Below are positions 11,633 to 17,839 of a DNA stretch of 64,000 nucleotides, piece by piece. The position numbers and the translations under genes are program-made. The notes beneath the pieces were generated by a model, which saw nothing but the letters and a program-made list of their open reading frames with translations, was not told the DNA's origin and ran no database searches. How positions within the stretch are numbered: the stretch's first letter is position 1; each line of letters opens with the position of its first letter. This DNA comes from Methanolobus zinderi (GTDB lineage: Archaea; Halobacteriota; Methanosarcinia; Methanosarcinales; Methanosarcinaceae): assembly GCF_013388255.1 (NCBI RefSeq), contig NZ_CP058215.1, positions 1,240,001 to 1,304,000 on the forward strand. The letters are read 5' to 3'.

Positions 11633-11654
11633 TTGAATAAATTAATATAGGTCC
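11633..11654 (+). promoter_or_regulatory. Promoter element of first cobD copy (shared with second copy)
   Basis: A 22-base stretch containing TTAATATAGGTCC that recurs before the second cobD copy with 20 of 22 identical bases (13200-13221). TTAATATA is a plausible TATA box; the start of transcription would lie just before the GTG start. Confidence 0.5.
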
Positions 11655-11679
11655 TTTGCATACACAGTTGTTGATTATT

Positions 11680-13170
11680 GTGTCTGAAGATGATAAAAAG
11701 CTTCCAGTTAAACGTTATCTGCTGGATATGTCCACCTGTGAGCACGGAGGGCAGCTTGATAAAGCCTCAGAAGAACTGGATATTGCGGAATCAGATATTC
11801 TTGATTTCAGCTCATGCCTCAATCCGATTGGAAACCCTTTCAACTATGAAGGAAGCGGCCTTGATATCGAAAATCTTCGTAATATAGCTGCAGCGAAGCT
11901 GGAACAGTACCCTGATAACCGTTATATTGAACTCAGGTCAGCTGCCGCAGCTTTCCTCGGAAAAGGCATAGCTTATGCCAACATAGTTCCGGGTAATGGT
12001 ACATGCGAACTGCTCCGGCTTATACTTGAGTGTACGCTGGAGGAAGGGGAAAAGGTAATAGTCCCTCTGCCATGCCCGCTTGAATATCATCACTCATGCA
12101 GGACATTCGGAACAGTTCCCCAGAAGATGGCACTGGATGAGATGCTACGGATTCCTAAAAGGACGATTGAGAGATCAAAGCTGATCTTCTTCTCGAATCC
12201 TAACAATCCTGCCGGGAAGCTTGCATCCCGGGAAGAGATGCGGGAATTTGCCTCAAAATGCGCAGAACATCAGACCCTCCTGATAGTTGACGAATCCTTT
12301 ATCGAACTCTCGGATCCCGCGCAAAGTGTTGCGGATCTTGCCCTTGATAATGACTATCTGATCGTACTTCGCTCGGTAACGAATGCTTTTTCCATGCCCG
12401 GAATCAGGTTCTCCTATGGGATAGCTTCAAAGGCCATGGCTGATAGGCTGAACTCCGCCAGGCTCTCATGGAATATCGGTGCACTGACCGAGTCTGTTGC
12501 AACAGGTGTTCTGAGTATGGAGGGCGGCCCTGAAAGCAGCTATCTTCAGAGATCACGGGAATTCATAAGTAAAGAAAGAGAATACATTGCAGGGCGTATT
12601 TCTGCCCTTTATGGTTTTAAAGTCCTTGAAAGCAGTGCCAATTATATACTTGTGGACATGGACGGGCATTTCATGGACTCTGAGCGTTTCGTGGATCGCT
12701 TTTCAAAGCATGGGGTACTGATACGTGAATGCAGTGATTTCTTTGGAGGAGAAAAGCGCTATTTCCGTCTGTCAGTACGTTCAAGGGAGGATTTTGAAAA
12801 ACTAATCGGAAACCTTGATGACGTATACGCCGAATCCAGCAGGGAAGCTGCAAGGGAACAGCTTGAGGAAACCATAGAGCATCCTGAAAAAACGGTATCA
12901 AGCCGGGGAACATGCAGCTACTATCCATGTCATTTCCAGGGTCAGGACTGCACCTTCTGCTTCTGTCCCTTCTATGCCTGCGAGGACGAGAAAACAGGCG
13001 GTTTCTGGATAGACAGCGCCACAGGCGGTAAGGTCTGGAGCTGTGAGAACTGTACTCTCCTGCACCAGCCAAAGACAGCAAAGAAGATACTTGATGTCCT
13101 CATGGATGAGGGGGACACCGACGAGAATATCCTGAAGGCCTGGAGAGAAGTGATCAAACCACTCCTCTAG
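11680..13170 (+). CDS. CobD paralogue lacking the PLP lysine, with Cys-rich C-terminal domain
   Basis: A 496-residue relative of threonine-phosphate decarboxylase. Residues about 20-385 have the class-I aminotransferase fold with most cofactor motifs intact (GNGTCELLRL, SNPNNPAG, VDESFIEL, GIRFSYG, YFRLSVR). The Schiff-base lysine is replaced by asparagine N235 (codon 12382-12384; SVTNAFSMPGIR versus SLTKAFAIPGIR in the next gene). Residues 412-458 form a Cys-rich module with eight cysteines (CSYYPC, CTFCFC, CENC) plus H. In Methanosarcina mazei a CobD with such a tail was reported to be both L-threonine kinase and decarboxylase. This copy can hardly decarboxylate by PLP chemistry; it may keep kinase or structural roles. 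GTG 11680 matches the paralogue's start. Confidence 0.85.
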   Translation: MSEDDKKLPVKRYLLDMSTCEHGGQLDKASEELDIAESDILDFSSCLNPIGNPFNYEGSGLDIENLRNIAAAKLEQYPDNRYIELRSAAAAFLGKGIAYANIVPGNGTCELLRLILECTLEEGEKVIVPLPCPLEYHHSCRTFGTVPQKMALDEMLRIPKRTIERSKLIFFSNPNNPAGKLASREEMREFASKCAEHQTLLIVDESFIELSDPAQSVADLALDNDYLIVLRSVTNAFSMPGIRFSYGIASKAMADRLNSARLSWNIGALTESVATGVLSMEGGPESSYLQRSREFISKEREYIAGRISALYGFKVLESSANYILVDMDGHFMDSERFVDRFSKHGVLIRECSDFFGGEKRYFRLSVRSREDFEKLIGNLDDVYAESSREAAREQLEETIEHPEKTVSSRGTCSYYPCHFQGQDCTFCFCPFYACEDEKTGGFWIDSATGGKVWSCENCTLLHQPKTAKKILDVLMDEGDTDENILKAWREVIKPLL

Positions 13171-13199
13171 TCGCCAGACTCCCTTTACATATCATTTAA

Positions 13200-13221
13200 T
13201 TGATTAAGTTAATATAGGTCC
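13200..13221 (+). promoter_or_regulatory. Promoter element of second cobD copy (repeat of 11633-11654)
   Basis: Same TATA-containing element as before the first copy, 25 bases upstream of the GTG start and 30 bases after the stop of the first copy. It indicates that the promoter was duplicated with the gene, and that the second copy can be transcribed on its own. Confidence 0.5.
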
Positions 13222-13245
13222 AATAAACTACAGTTTGTGATTATC

Positions 13246-14739
13246 GTGTCCGAAAATACAGCACCTATCCCGGTAAAAGAATATCTCCTTGCACTTGAGC
13301 CAGGCGCTCACGGAGGACTGATCCGAAAAAGCTCCCAGGAATATTGCATTCCTGAGGATGAGATACTTGACGCAAGCGCAAGCCTGAATCCTTTTGGCAC
13401 GCCTTTCGAATATCCTTATACCGGACTTGATCTTAACCTGTTACTTGACAGGGGACTTGAAAAAATGGAGCAGTACCCTGACAATCGTTATCTTGAGTAC
13501 AGAAAAGCTGCTGCGGAATTTACTGGTATGGGTGTAGTTCCCGAAAATATCATTCCCGGAAACGGATCCACCGAGATAATCCGGCTTGTTACGGAATGTG
13601 TGATCGAGGAAGGGGACTCTGTCCTTATTCCCCAGCCCACCTTCAGTGAGTATGAGGTACAGTGCAGGGTGCTTGGTGCTAATATAAAATATATCCGTCA
13701 ACAGGATCTTCTTTCTCTTAACGGAGATATCCTTGGGGATGCAAAGATCTTGTTCGTCTGTAATCCCAATAATCCCACAGGGCAGCTTTTTACCAGGGAG
13801 CAGATAGCAGATATAGCAGAAAAATGTGCCCGAAATGATACGCTGCTGTTTGTGGACGAGGCTTTCATAGAACTTGCAGACCCGGACCAGAGTGTTGCGG
13901 ACATGGTCGAAGCCAACAATTATCTTTTCATACAGCGATCCCTTACAAAGGCATTTGCAATTCCAGGTATCAGAATGGGTTTCGGTATAGCTTCCACCTC
14001 CTTTGCAAAGGTTTTGAACAACGCAAGACTTTCATGGAATCTTGGCTCAATTGCGGATAATGTTGCAACCGCACTCTTGAAAATGGAAGGTGGTGTTAAC
14101 AGCAGATATTTAGTTGAGTCAAGGGAACTTATCGAGACAGAAAGGGATTATCTTACTCAGAAGCTTAACCGTCGCGGATTCAAGCCCTTTAAGAGCAGTG
14201 TCAATTATATTTTCGTAGATATTTCGGAATTCTCCATGAACTCCACCGAACTGGCACAACGCATGGCATCACATGGAGTGCTTATACGTGACTGCAGTTC
14301 CTTCCAGGAGATCGGTGATGATTATATCAGGGTTGCTGTCAGGACACGGGAAGAGAATGATCGTATACTGCAGACTATAAAGCAGGTAATAAGCGAATGG
14401 GGAAGGGAACAGGCCGAAGCCATGCTCGATGCCAACCTTGAAAAGGCCGCTGATTGCGGAAGGCTTGGCAGCAATACAGATTGTGATTATTATCCCTGTC
14501 ACTTTGAGGGTCAGGACTGCACTTTATGTTTCTGTCCTTTCTATCCGTGCGAAGATGAACGTACCGGAGGCCAGTGGATCGAGAGTTCCTCGGGAGGTAA
14601 GGTATGGAGCTGCCTCTATTGTGATATAGTACATAAGCCGGAAGTGGTTGATGATGTGCTCTCTGTTCTTGTTAAAGAAGGACGGAATGAAAAGAGCATA
14701 AAGAAAGCCTGGAAAAACGCCCTGGAGACCAGGTTATGA
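13246..14739 (+). CDS. cobD: Threonine-phosphate decarboxylase (CobD) with Cys-rich C-terminal domain
   Basis: PLP enzyme converting L-threonine-O-3-phosphate to (R)-1-aminopropan-2-ol phosphate, which CbiB attaches to the corrin ring. 497 residues. Complete active site: GNGSTEIIRL, CNPNNPTG, VDEAFIEL, K235 in SLTKAFAIPGIR (13948-13950) and the substrate-binding arginine in YIRVAVR. The C-terminal tail (about residues 415-465) has the same eight cysteines as the upstream copy (CDYYPC, CTLCFC, CLYC); in M. mazei this tail type goes with L-threonine kinase activity. GTG 13246 follows GTGAT by 4 bases. The stop overlaps the cbiB start by four bases. Confidence 0.92.
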   Translation: MSENTAPIPVKEYLLALEPGAHGGLIRKSSQEYCIPEDEILDASASLNPFGTPFEYPYTGLDLNLLLDRGLEKMEQYPDNRYLEYRKAAAEFTGMGVVPENIIPGNGSTEIIRLVTECVIEEGDSVLIPQPTFSEYEVQCRVLGANIKYIRQQDLLSLNGDILGDAKILFVCNPNNPTGQLFTREQIADIAEKCARNDTLLFVDEAFIELADPDQSVADMVEANNYLFIQRSLTKAFAIPGIRMGFGIASTSFAKVLNNARLSWNLGSIADNVATALLKMEGGVNSRYLVESRELIETERDYLTQKLNRRGFKPFKSSVNYIFVDISEFSMNSTELAQRMASHGVLIRDCSSFQEIGDDYIRVAVRTREENDRILQTIKQVISEWGREQAEAMLDANLEKAADCGRLGSNTDCDYYPCHFEGQDCTLCFCPFYPCEDERTGGQWIESSSGGKVWSCLYCDIVHKPEVVDDVLSVLVKEGRNEKSIKKAWKNALETRL

Positions 14740-15731
14740 TCCTGCCAGTGCAGCTTGTACCAGAAGAACTTGCGGTAATCCTTTTTCTTGCCTTTTTCCT
14801 GGACCTGGCTCTGAACGAACCACCTTTTGCGGTCCATCCGGTCGTGTGGATGGGAAACCTGATAGGAAAACTAAAAAAGGCTGCACCTTCTGAATACCGG
14901 AAAGCCTATGGGGTTTTGATGGCACTGGTAACTATCACCTTTGCCGCAGCCATAGCATATGCAGTCCTGCTGCTGTTCAGCATTGAAGCAATACCCAGGA
15001 TAATAAGCATCTTTATAGCAGCCTATTTCCTAAAGGCAACTTTTTCTGTAAGATGTCTTTTTGAGGCTGCCCAGGAGATCAGAGGCAAGCTGGAGACTGG
15101 TAAAATGGACGAAGCCCGTCAGGGCCTGTCAATGTATGTAAGCCGGAACACCTCAAAACTTGATGAGAACCATATATCCTCTGCAATAATAGAAACCGTC
15201 TCCGAGAATTTTGTGGACGGCATCCTTACACCATTATTGTTCTATGCGGTTTTCGGTCCCTATGGACTGATTGCAGCTTATATTTTCAAAGCCACCAGCA
15301 CGCTTGATTCCATGGTCGGATATAAGGATGAACGCCATCTTCAGATGGGCTGGTTCTCTGCAAGACTGGATGATGTGTTCAACTGGATACCTGCACGTCT
15401 TTCCATGTTCTTTATCTTCCTGGGATCTGTTATAGTAGGTTTTTCTTTGAAGTCCTACAAAAGGGTGAATCCCGCAGGTGCAATACAGCTTGCACTGAGT
15501 GATGGTCTGAAAACACCTTCCCCGAATTCCGGTTATCCTATGTCTTCGGTTGCAGGGGCATTGAGGATAAGGCTTGAGAAGCCGAACACATACGTGCTTG
15601 GAGAGAATTATGTTTATCCCGTATATGAGGATGTAAGGCTTACAGCCTGGATAGTTATGGCATCTTCCTTTGTAGCGGTCGCTGCATCCGCATTGATTAT
15701 TTATGGTATAGACTTTCTTACATTAGGCTAA
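14736..15731 (+). CDS. cbiB: Adenosylcobinamide-phosphate synthase
   Basis: Integral membrane protein (331 residues) that joins adenosylcobyric acid to aminopropanol phosphate. Four to five hydrophobic segments are visible. Family motifs include LDLALNEPP, HPVVWMGN, MYVSRNTSKLDE, SAIIETVSENFVDG, ATSTLDSMVGYKDER, GWFSARLDDVFNWIPARL and SPNSGYPMSSVAGAL. The ATG overlaps the cobD stop (ATGA), and the CbiB substrate is the CobD product, so the two steps are translationally coupled. Confidence 0.95.
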   Translation: MILPVQLVPEELAVILFLAFFLDLALNEPPFAVHPVVWMGNLIGKLKKAAPSEYRKAYGVLMALVTITFAAAIAYAVLLLFSIEAIPRIISIFIAAYFLKATFSVRCLFEAAQEIRGKLETGKMDEARQGLSMYVSRNTSKLDENHISSAIIETVSENFVDGILTPLLFYAVFGPYGLIAAYIFKATSTLDSMVGYKDERHLQMGWFSARLDDVFNWIPARLSMFFIFLGSVIVGFSLKSYKRVNPAGAIQLALSDGLKTPSPNSGYPMSSVAGALRIRLEKPNTYVLGENYVYPVYEDVRLTAWIVMASSFVAVAASALIIYGIDFLTLG

Positions 15732-15765
15732 GTTATACGAATTATTTGAATCCAGAGTGATGGCA

Positions 15766-16380
15766 ATGAAATTATCGGACATAGAATCTGAAGACCTTAA
15801 AAAGGACCAGTCAAAAGAGCTGGAAGGAGAGATCACCCACAGCATCCTTGAAATACTCGAGGACGAAGGCATTACTGTAGACATGCTCATTGATTCGGCG
15901 ATGGCGTTATATGCACCGCATCCGGGACTTGAGACAAGGGAAATTGCCGAAAAACGCTTTCTTGAAGAACTCGACATCGCCCTTTCCGATCCGAATCTGT
16001 GTCTGCTCATCTACGCAGGAGTACTCCTTGAGAGAGAAGGAAAAACCGGTACTCTGCCTGATATAAGTAAGAGTTCCTACGAGAAGGACCTGACCTTCAT
16101 AATAGCTGACGAAGTACTGGGGATGAGCATTTCGAAGTACATCAGTGGTGATAAGGGGATGTTCGAGTTTGTAAGGTTCGATAAGCAAAAGCCCGGTATC
16201 CTGTCAAAGCTCGGTCCGTTCATGGACGATGTAATAGGTGGCCTTATCGGAGGAGTATCTGCCAATATGTATACAAGAGGCATGGCAGAAGCCAGTAATT
16301 CCTCCAGAAAAAAGAAGAAGGAGTCTAAAGAGAAAAAGAAGGGATCAGACAGTGATCTGGGCGGTGTGATCGCAGGATGA
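15766..16380 (+). CDS. cobZ: Alpha-ribazole-phosphate phosphatase (CobZ), with lysine-rich tail
   Basis: 204 residues. It fits the archaeal CobZ phosphatase that removes the 5'-phosphate of alpha-ribazole phosphate or adenosylcobalamin phosphate, first described in Methanosarcina mazei in the same gene neighbourhood. Support: DSAMALYAPHPGLETREIAEKRF, a middle FIIADEVLGMSISKYI and the glycine-rich VIGGLIGGVSANMYTRG near the end. The last ~30 residues are an extra tail of lysine, serine and glutamate (KKKKESKEKKK) that could interact with membrane lipids or RNA. ATG 15766 follows GAGTGAT by 4 bases. The stop overlaps cobS. Confidence 0.85.
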   Translation: MKLSDIESEDLKKDQSKELEGEITHSILEILEDEGITVDMLIDSAMALYAPHPGLETREIAEKRFLEELDIALSDPNLCLLIYAGVLLEREGKTGTLPDISKSSYEKDLTFIIADEVLGMSISKYISGDKGMFEFVRFDKQKPGILSKLGPFMDDVIGGLIGGVSANMYTRGMAEASNSSRKKKKESKEKKKGSDSDLGGVIAG

Positions 16381-17204
16381 ATAACTTTTTACTGGCAGTA
16401 CGTTCAAGCTTTGGATTCCTCTCTACAATCCCGGTGGGTATTACCATGGAAGGACTCGATGAGTTCTTCAAAAGAACCTACCTGCATATACTTGTAGGGA
16501 TCGTGCTTGGCCTGATAATAGGTGCCGTGGCCTTTGTCCTGGAACTGTTCCTTTCAGCACAACTGAGTGCCGTTTTCATTGTTATATTCGTATATTATCT
16601 GACAGGACTGAACCATCTTGACGGCATAGCGGATCTTGGTGACGGTATGACAGCCCATGGCTCCCGGGAGAAGAAACTGAAGGCATTAAAGGATATGTCA
16701 CTGGGTATAGGAGGCGTTGCCTTTACCGTGCTCACATTACTGGCATTCTATGCAGCTCTGGTATCATTACAGGCGGAGGCTGCACTTTCAAGCACTTCTG
16801 TAACCAATATGGCTGTTATTATCTTTATATCGATGTTTGTTGCCGAGGTCAGTGCCATGCAGTCAATGCTGACAACTGCCGCATTCGGTAAGTCCATACA
16901 CGAAGGACTTGGTTCGATCCTTGTGGACAATACAACCATGCTAAAATATCTGCTTGGATTTGTGATGGGAATAATTGCCTGCACGATTGCATTCTGGATT
17001 ATCGGAATTCCGCTTGCGGGAGTTATAGCCTTCCTTGCAGCCATCCTTGCAACATTTGTTCTGCTCAATATAAGTAATCGGCATTTCGGTGGTGTGAACG
17101 GGGATGTCATCGGTTCATCCAACGAGGTCGGCAGGGTCATTGCATTGATAGCTATCTATCTTGTTTTAAAATATGATATCGGAGGAATTGTTTGGACGCT
17201 ATAA
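16377..17204 (+). CDS. cobS: Adenosylcobinamide-GDP ribazoletransferase
   Basis: Membrane enzyme (275 residues) that condenses adenosylcobinamide-GDP with alpha-ribazole or its phosphate in the last step of cobamide assembly. The metal-binding motif HLDGIADLGDG with the following LKALKDMSLG is present, and the C-terminal ISNRHFGGVNGDVIGSSNEVGR is diagnostic. Six to seven hydrophobic helices. The ATG overlaps the cobZ stop by four bases and the 3' end overlaps cobY by 13 bases. Confidence 0.95.
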   Translation: MNNFLLAVRSSFGFLSTIPVGITMEGLDEFFKRTYLHILVGIVLGLIIGAVAFVLELFLSAQLSAVFIVIFVYYLTGLNHLDGIADLGDGMTAHGSREKKLKALKDMSLGIGGVAFTVLTLLAFYAALVSLQAEAALSSTSVTNMAVIIFISMFVAEVSAMQSMLTTAAFGKSIHEGLGSILVDNTTMLKYLLGFVMGIIACTIAFWIIGIPLAGVIAFLAAILATFVLLNISNRHFGGVNGDVIGSSNEVGRVIALIAIYLVLKYDIGGIVWTL

Positions 17205-17839
17205 TCATGGCAGGGGGGTTTGGAAGCAGGCTTGGCATGGGTGAGAAACCCGTAGTCGAACTTCTTGGTAAACCACTTATCTCATACGTGATCGACGCAC
17301 TTGAGAACACGGAAAGCATAGGAAAGATATATGTCGCGGTCTCGCCTGCAACACCAACAACCGGCAGTATCGTACAGAACCGCTACGATGGCAGGGTCGA
17401 GGTAATTGACACAATGGGAGGCAACTATGTGGCCGATATGGTCTATGCAGTAAAAGCAGCAAAGATAACCGAGCCTGTGATGATACTGATGTCCGATATA
17501 CCACTGCTGAATCCTGAGCTTATTGAGCAAATAATTGAGGAATATAATAACTGCGGGACACCTGCAATGTCTGTTTTCTCTCCTATATATGTATGTAAAG
17601 GACTCGGGATTAGGCCTGATACCGTCTTCAACTGGAAGGGTAAGCTCATTGTCCCTGCGGGCATCAACATACTCGATGGCAAGGATGTAGAGAATGAACA
17701 ACCGTATGTCAGCCTGATACGGGAAGACCTCGAACTTGCCCTGAACATAAATACCGTAGCAGAACTTCAAAAGTGCAAGGAGATGCTTTCGGAAATCAGC
17801 AATGAGTCAACTGCACAAAGTAAAGTGTCCTCAGACTAG
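17192..17839 (+). CDS. cobY: Adenosylcobinamide-phosphate guanylyltransferase (archaeal type)
   Basis: GTP:adenosylcobinamide-phosphate guanylyltransferase, the archaeal replacement for CobU; it supplies the CobS substrate. 215 residues with the nucleotidyltransferase motif MAGGFGSRLGMGEKP at the N-terminus and LMSDIPLLNPELI as the metal-binding aspartate motif. The TTG start is 7 bases after GGAGG and lies inside the end of cobS. It closes the compact cob operon; the last ~20 residues are a polar tail. Confidence 0.93.
   Translation: MDAIIMAGGFGSRLGMGEKPVVELLGKPLISYVIDALENTESIGKIYVAVSPATPTTGSIVQNRYDGRVEVIDTMGGNYVADMVYAVKAAKITEPVMILMSDIPLLNPELIEQIIEEYNNCGTPAMSVFSPIYVCKGLGIRPDTVFNWKGKLIVPAGINILDGKDVENEQPYVSLIREDLELALNINTVAELQKCKEMLSEISNESTAQSKVSSD

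What the first reader, a model, noticed from the sequence alone, without database searches (positions are those of the whole stretch)
11633..14739. Tandem CobD copies; the first has lost the PLP lysine but kept everything else
Seen: two adjacent genes share the aminotransferase fold, an eight-Cys C-terminal module and a 22-base promoter element (20/22). In copy 1 the Schiff-base lysine is asparagine (codon 12382-12384), while the phosphate-cup, NPNNP and VDE motifs remain. Known: a Methanosarcina CobD with such a tail was reported as a threonine kinase plus decarboxylase. Inference: the two activities may be split, copy 1 as kinase-only or scaffold, copy 2 as decarboxylase.
Basis: partly seen in the sequence, partly recalled or inferred. 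Interest (0 to 1): 0.75.

Follow-up and report, generated by a model that had tools for sequence, protein, structure and literature searches.

The report
Conserved decarboxylase-dead CobD twin
Next to the vitamin B12 gene cobD, a group of methane-making archaea keeps a second copy that has lost the lysine needed for its known chemistry yet is strictly preserved by selection, so it almost certainly has another job, as a partner of the working copy or as a stand-alone threonine kinase.

Summary
Copy 1 (TTG 11671-13170) and copy 2 (13237-14739) are adjacent CobD paralogues, 47% identical, each with an aminotransferase domain and a Cys8/His2 PF04071 tail. The Schiff-base lysine is AAG at 13948-13950 in copy 2 and Asn (AAT, 12382-12384) in copy 1. 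It is neither an error nor decay. All 27 genomes of the genus (Methanolobus by record titles) and six of a second genus carry the same adjacent pair. All 33 copy-1 orthologues lack the lysine (N 24, H 6, R/D/G 1 each) and form one clade; copy-1 dN/dS is 0.08-0.16; the eight tail cysteines and two histidines are invariant. 'Kept everything else' is too strong: 25 of 81 conserved catalytic-domain positions are relaxed in the genus, PLP-site ones prominently. Two further lysine-less CobD lineages occur in the family. Copy 2 keeps nearly all positions conserved in single-copy enzymes, so a clean split (copy 1 kinase, copy 2 decarboxylase only) gets no support from copy 2. Best reading: a selected, decarboxylase-dead CobD acting as partner subunit of copy 2 (like LCB1 of serine palmitoyltransferase); kinase-only copy 1 is a close rival. 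No activity or interaction could be tested.

The parts
11633..11654 (+). Promoter element of copy 1 with TATA-like TTAATATA (11642-11649), about 25-30 bases before the start codon; recognisable upstream of copy 1 across the genus
11671..13170 (+). Copy 1: CobD paralogue without the PLP lysine, 499 aa from TTG 11671 (the ORF tool's longer start is TTG 11656)
11887..12810 (+). Copy 1 aminotransferase class I/II domain (PF00155)
   Evidence: model best matches S. enterica CobD 1lkc
12382..12384 (+). AAT, Asn in place of the Schiff-base lysine (aligned to S. enterica CobD K216)
12901..13110 (+). Copy 1 cysteine-rich tail (PF04071), 8 Cys + 2 His
13200..13221 (+). Promoter element of copy 2 (20/22 like that of copy 1)
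13237..14739 (+). Copy 2: CobD with PLP lysine and the same tail; above the NCBIfam TIGR01140 cut-off
13948..13950 (+). AAG, PLP Schiff-base lysine of copy 2
14467..14670 (+). Copy 2 cysteine-rich tail (PF04071)
14736..15731 (+). cbiB, adenosylcobinamide-phosphate synthase, overlaps the end of copy 2
15757..16380 (+). PgpA-like gene in the position of archaeal cobZ
   Evidence: name cobZ from own knowledge
16377..17204 (+). cobS
17192..17839 (+). cobY-like guanylyltransferase
   Evidence: below the NCBIfam cut-off

Best explanation
Copy 1 is an ancient paralogue of the tailed archaeal CobD (L-threonine kinase / L-threonine-phosphate decarboxylase) that lost the PLP lysine before Methanolobus and its partner genus (g11) split. 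It is maintained as a non-decarboxylating partner of copy 2. It most likely pairs with copy 2, as LCB1 pairs with LCB2 in serine palmitoyltransferase: it keeps the dimer-forming fold, the tyrosine that fold-type-I enzymes lend to the neighbouring active site, a substrate-binding arginine and a second metal-binding tail, while copy 2 carries the only complete PLP site. Shown here: loss of the lysine in all orthologues, selection, linkage to the cobamide operon, intact tail. Inferred: loss of decarboxylase activity, pairing with copy 2, what the tail does.
For: All 33 orthologues lack K, one clade, support 100. Copy-1 dN/dS 0.08-0.16, copy 2 0.03-0.12. Eight Cys and two His 33/33, Y80 33/33, D207 33/33, R365 33/33. 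In the genus, relaxed sites lie in the catalytic domain (25 of 81), hardly in the tail (1 of 28). Order copy1-copy2-cbiB-cobZ-cobS-cobY in every genome of the two genera as far as the contig reaches. Conserved promoter. Parallel losses at T135, F136, C175, A209, T237, K238, G248, A367 in another lysine-less lineage. In one other family of the class the tail is a separate ORF next to cobD, so it can presumably act in trans. Precedent for a lysine-less partner: PMC3794620.
Against: No direct evidence of a copy 1-copy 2 complex. Y80, R365 and the fold could also be kept for another reason, such as a kinase site. The third lysine-less lineage (two genomes) has lost the YPDNRY motif, so lending a tyrosine to a partner cannot explain it.
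Confidence: 0.42

Rival explanations
1. Copy 1 is a dedicated L-threonine kinase: it lost decarboxylation but kept the second activity reported for MmCobD, feeding L-threonine phosphate to copy 2.
For: A bifunctional single-copy homologue is reported for M. mazei (title cited in PMC9986279; details from own knowledge). The genome has four GHMP kinases; their best NCBIfam matches are mevalonate kinase, archaeal shikimate kinase, pantoate kinase (below its cut-off) and beta-RFAP synthase, none a threonine kinase. Only the decarboxylase lysine region is lost repeatedly while R365 and the tail stay.
Against: Copy 2 shows no matching release of sites. No ATP-binding motif was identified in the family. 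The third lysine-less lineage has lost 48 of 81 conserved catalytic-domain positions.
Confidence: 0.33
2. Copy 1 has a new reaction, for example PLP/PMP chemistry without a lysine as in ColD-type dehydratases (which use His; own knowledge), or a metal-related or regulatory role outside the CobD step.
For: His is fixed (6/6) in the second genus and Asn dominates (24/27) in Methanolobus. The PLP-phosphate Arg (R246) and GNG cup largely remain in Methanolobus.
Against: R246, N109 and N178 are lost in the second genus; T135, F136, T237 and G248 are lost or mostly lost in both. Tight linkage with the nucleotide-loop genes.
Confidence: 0.13
3. Recent decay, pseudogene or sequencing error.
For: One relative (G051) has a frame break near the N terminus of copy 1. 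Copy 1 evolves faster than copy 2.
Against: 33 orthologues, none with K; dN/dS about 0.1; conserved promoter and tail.
Confidence: 0.01

Closest known systems
Methanosarcina mazei CobD (MM2060), L-Thr kinase/L-Thr-P decarboxylase with metal-binding tail
   Same: Same two-domain layout, same genomic slot before cbiB-cobZ-cobS-cobY in the single-copy genomes of the Methanosarcina-like genus g13, whose CobDs are about 44-50% identical to copy 1
   Different: It has the PLP lysine (in the g13 homologues read here) and is a single gene; copy 1 lacks the lysine and several PLP-site residues
Salmonella enterica CobD (1LC5/1LC7/1LC8/1LKC)
   Same: Best structural match of the copy 1 model; counterparts of its R323/R337 kept in Methanolobus copy 1
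   Different: No Cys-rich tail; K216 is Asn in copy 1
Serine palmitoyltransferase LCB1/LCB2
   Same: Pair of related PLP-fold proteins of which one lacks the lysine (PMC3794620)
   Different: Not the same family or reaction; pairing in the archaeal case is only inferred
Second, lysine-less CobD of Methanohalophilus (g10)
   Same: K lost, tail intact, in the cobamide operon
   Different: Groups with lysine-bearing second copies of another genus (99.7 support), so probably an independent loss (AU test borderline)

Membership tests
Threonine-phosphate decarboxylase CobD (TIGR01140) | Score above curated cut-off 290.55 | tested here: not met
   Copy 1 scores 247.4, copy 2 scores 299.4
Threonine-phosphate decarboxylase CobD (TIGR01140) | PLP Schiff-base lysine | tested here: not met
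   Asn in copy 1; absent in all 33 orthologues. Met in copy 2
Threonine-phosphate decarboxylase CobD (TIGR01140) | Fold-type-I aminotransferase fold | tested here: met
   PF00155; 1lkc top Foldseek hit, TM 0.86 by target
Threonine-phosphate decarboxylase CobD (TIGR01140) | Decarboxylase activity | not testable with these tools
   Needs an assay
Tailed archaeal CobD (MmCobD type) | C-terminal PF04071 module with 8 Cys | tested here: met
Tailed archaeal CobD (MmCobD type) | L-threonine kinase activity | not testable with these tools
   Needs an assay; kinase site unknown
Tailed archaeal CobD (MmCobD type) | Nested among tailed CobDs in a rooted tree | tested here: met
   Copy 1 lies inside lysine-bearing tailed CobDs of the family
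LCB1-like pseudo-subunit (works like) | Physical heterodimer with the active paralogue | not testable with these tools
   Only adjacency and co-inheritance shown

The most novel reading that the evidence does not exclude
Methanosarcinaceae have repeatedly turned a CobD duplicate into a lysine-less, metal-tail-carrying subunit that forms a two-gene aminopropanol-phosphate synthase with the active copy: a PLP pseudoenzyme partner in vitamin B12 synthesis, evolved more than once.
Probability: 0.3. Interest if true: 0.75.

Novelty: new variant of a known kind. Interest (0 to 1): 0.6.

Why it matters
The archaeal L-threonine kinase of cobamide synthesis is known (to my knowledge) only as a second activity of a CobD whose kinase site and metal tail are not understood. 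Nature has made separation-of-function variants here: proteins with an intact tail and substrate arginine but no decarboxylase lysine. Comparing copy 1, copy 2 and their pair makes it directly testable where the kinase lies and what the metal tail does. Annotation by similarity could also miscount these genes as active decarboxylases.

Tried and rejected
Sequencing error or decay: rejected by 33 orthologues and dN/dS. A reciprocal split (copy 2 decarboxylase only): looked for sites kept in copy 1 and relaxed in copy 2; only T202, R413 and G444. A separate PduX-type kinase: the four GHMP kinases best match other families. One origin for all lysine-less CobDs: AU p 0.041 with all, 0.0485 without the third lineage, so only weakly rejected. 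The two key Biochemistry papers on MmCobD are not in the library; I looked for the 2018 one under two ids. Searches for literature on tandem or lysine-less CobD gave nothing relevant. The tail was modelled at low confidence, so no fold search was made for it alone. The copy 2 model was not searched.

Full report
WHAT IS THERE. The window holds two adjacent CobD-like genes, copy 1 (TTG 11671-13170) and copy 2 (13237-14739), followed by cbiB, a PgpA-like gene in the cobZ position, cobS and cobY. Each protein has an aminotransferase class I/II domain and a cysteine-rich PF04071 tail. They are 46% identical over the catalytic domain and 65% over the core of the tail. The lysine that forms the Schiff base with PLP (K216 in S. 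enterica CobD by alignment) is AAG 13948-13950 in copy 2 and Asn AAT 12382-12384 in copy 1. The shared promoter element is real: 20 of 22 bases, against a best of 18 in 300 mononucleotide shuffles. It holds a TATA-like box about 25-30 bases before the aligned start codons TTG/GTG; leaderless transcription is an inference. The promoter of copy 1 is recognisably conserved across the genus.

NOT AN ERROR, NOT DECAY. In every one copy 1 lacks the lysine: Asn 24, Arg 1, Asp 1, Gly 1, and His 6 in the second genus. The 33 copy-1 proteins form one clade and the 33 copy-2 proteins another, each with support 100. In a tree rooted on another family of the class, copy 1 lies inside the lysine-bearing CobDs of the family, so the lysine was lost, not never gained. 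Pairwise dN/dS (Nei-Gojobori) is 0.08-0.16 for copy 1 and 0.03-0.12 for copy 2. The order copy1-copy2-cbiB-cobZ-cobS-cobY is kept wherever the contig is long enough. One relative, G051, has a frame break near the N terminus of copy 1, which may be an assembly error.

WHAT WAS LOST AND WHAT WAS KEPT. I took 109 positions conserved in 24 lysine-bearing relatives from genera and families without the pair. Copy 1 of the genus is relaxed at 26 (25 of 81 in the catalytic domain, 1 of 28 in the tail); g11 copy 1 at 32 (31 and 1); copy 2 at 9 (6 and 3). The relaxed set includes the neighbours of the lysine and the PLP pocket: T135, F136, C175, A209, T237, K238, G248 (copy 2 numbering; pocket roles from established knowledge of fold type I). 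Kept in all 33: eight Cys and two His of the tail, Y80 of YPDNRY, D207, R365. The GNG cup and R246 are kept in Methanolobus (with single exceptions) but lost in g11. So 'kept everything else' is too strong. The window copy differs at 16 of the 109, copy 2 at 5.

IT HAPPENED MORE THAN ONCE, PROBABLY. A second CobD, diverged like copy 1, is found in all eight genomes of g10 (Methanohalophilus by a record title) covered. I read the residue at the lysine position (D 3, T 2, N 1, Y 1) in the seven sequences kept; the eighth, G031, was left out of that alignment. In the four genomes whose flanks I read, it sits directly before cbiB while the lysine-bearing copy is elsewhere. It groups with the lysine-bearing second copies of another genus (99.7 support). 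Third, strongly eroded copies with Asn and Asp in place of Lys occur in G064 and G069. All keep the tail; dN/dS is 0.11-0.24 (the G064/G069 pair is saturated at synonymous sites). A single origin for all is only weakly rejected (AU p 0.041 and 0.0485), and long branches are involved, so I call independent loss probable, not proven.

HOW IT MAY WORK. A protein without the lysine cannot form the internal aldimine, so decarboxylase activity is very unlikely (established chemistry). Two models remain close. In the partner model, copy 1 pairs with copy 2, keeping the dimer fold, the tyrosine that such enzymes lend to the neighbouring site (own knowledge of AAT and HisC), a substrate arginine and a second metal tail. 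Serine palmitoyltransferase LCB1/LCB2 is the precedent (PMC3794620). In the kinase model, copy 1 keeps the L-threonine kinase activity reported for M. mazei CobD (Tavares 2018, 2019; titles seen in PMC9986279; the papers themselves are not held). The genome's four GHMP kinases best match other named families, so the kinase must come from elsewhere, possibly from either copy. Against a clean split, copy 2 has kept nearly all conserved positions; only T202, R413 and G444 are kept in copy 1 and relaxed in copy 2. The tail can presumably act in trans, since in one family of the class it is a separate ORF beside cobD, and in a Methanomassiliicoccaceae contig it is fused to a CobQ/CbiA-like protein. 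The copy 1 model is good in the catalytic domain and best matches S. enterica CobD; the tail is modelled poorly.

VERDICT. Observation confirmed, interpretation partly supported: a conserved decarboxylase-dead CobD paralogue, a new variant of a known kind, with partner subunit slightly favoured over kinase-only.

Noticed in passing
L212:4509-5999 (G034), L211, L213, L214: Genomes of g10 (Methanohalophilus) keep the lysine-less CobD in the operon slot before cbiB, while the lysine-bearing CobD lies elsewhere.
   Followed up: yes
L216:4157-5665 (G064), L215 (G069): Third, strongly eroded lysine-less CobD copies with the Cys-rich tail intact; no cbiB, cobZ, cobS or cobY found in the flanks read.
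   Followed up: partly
L207:4675-4965, L208, L209, L210, L218: In one family of the class (f5) the PF04071 tail is a separate ORF of about 95 codons next to or overlapping cobD.
   Followed up: partly
L046:4690-6489: PF04071 module at the N terminus of a CobQ/CbiA-like protein in a Methanomassiliicoccaceae contig.
   Followed up: no
L131 (G051) and L217 (G024): Frame breaks in single genomes: N terminus of copy 1 in G051, second cobD in G024; could be assembly errors.
   Followed up: no
L135-L140: In genus g7 two lysine-bearing cobD copies flank an extra cobY-like gene.
   Followed up: no
PMC8305020 (paper, not a locus): Haloferax volcanii is listed with two cobD genes and a gap at L-threonine kinase (EC 2.7.1.177); whether cobD2 keeps the lysine was not checked.
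   Followed up: no
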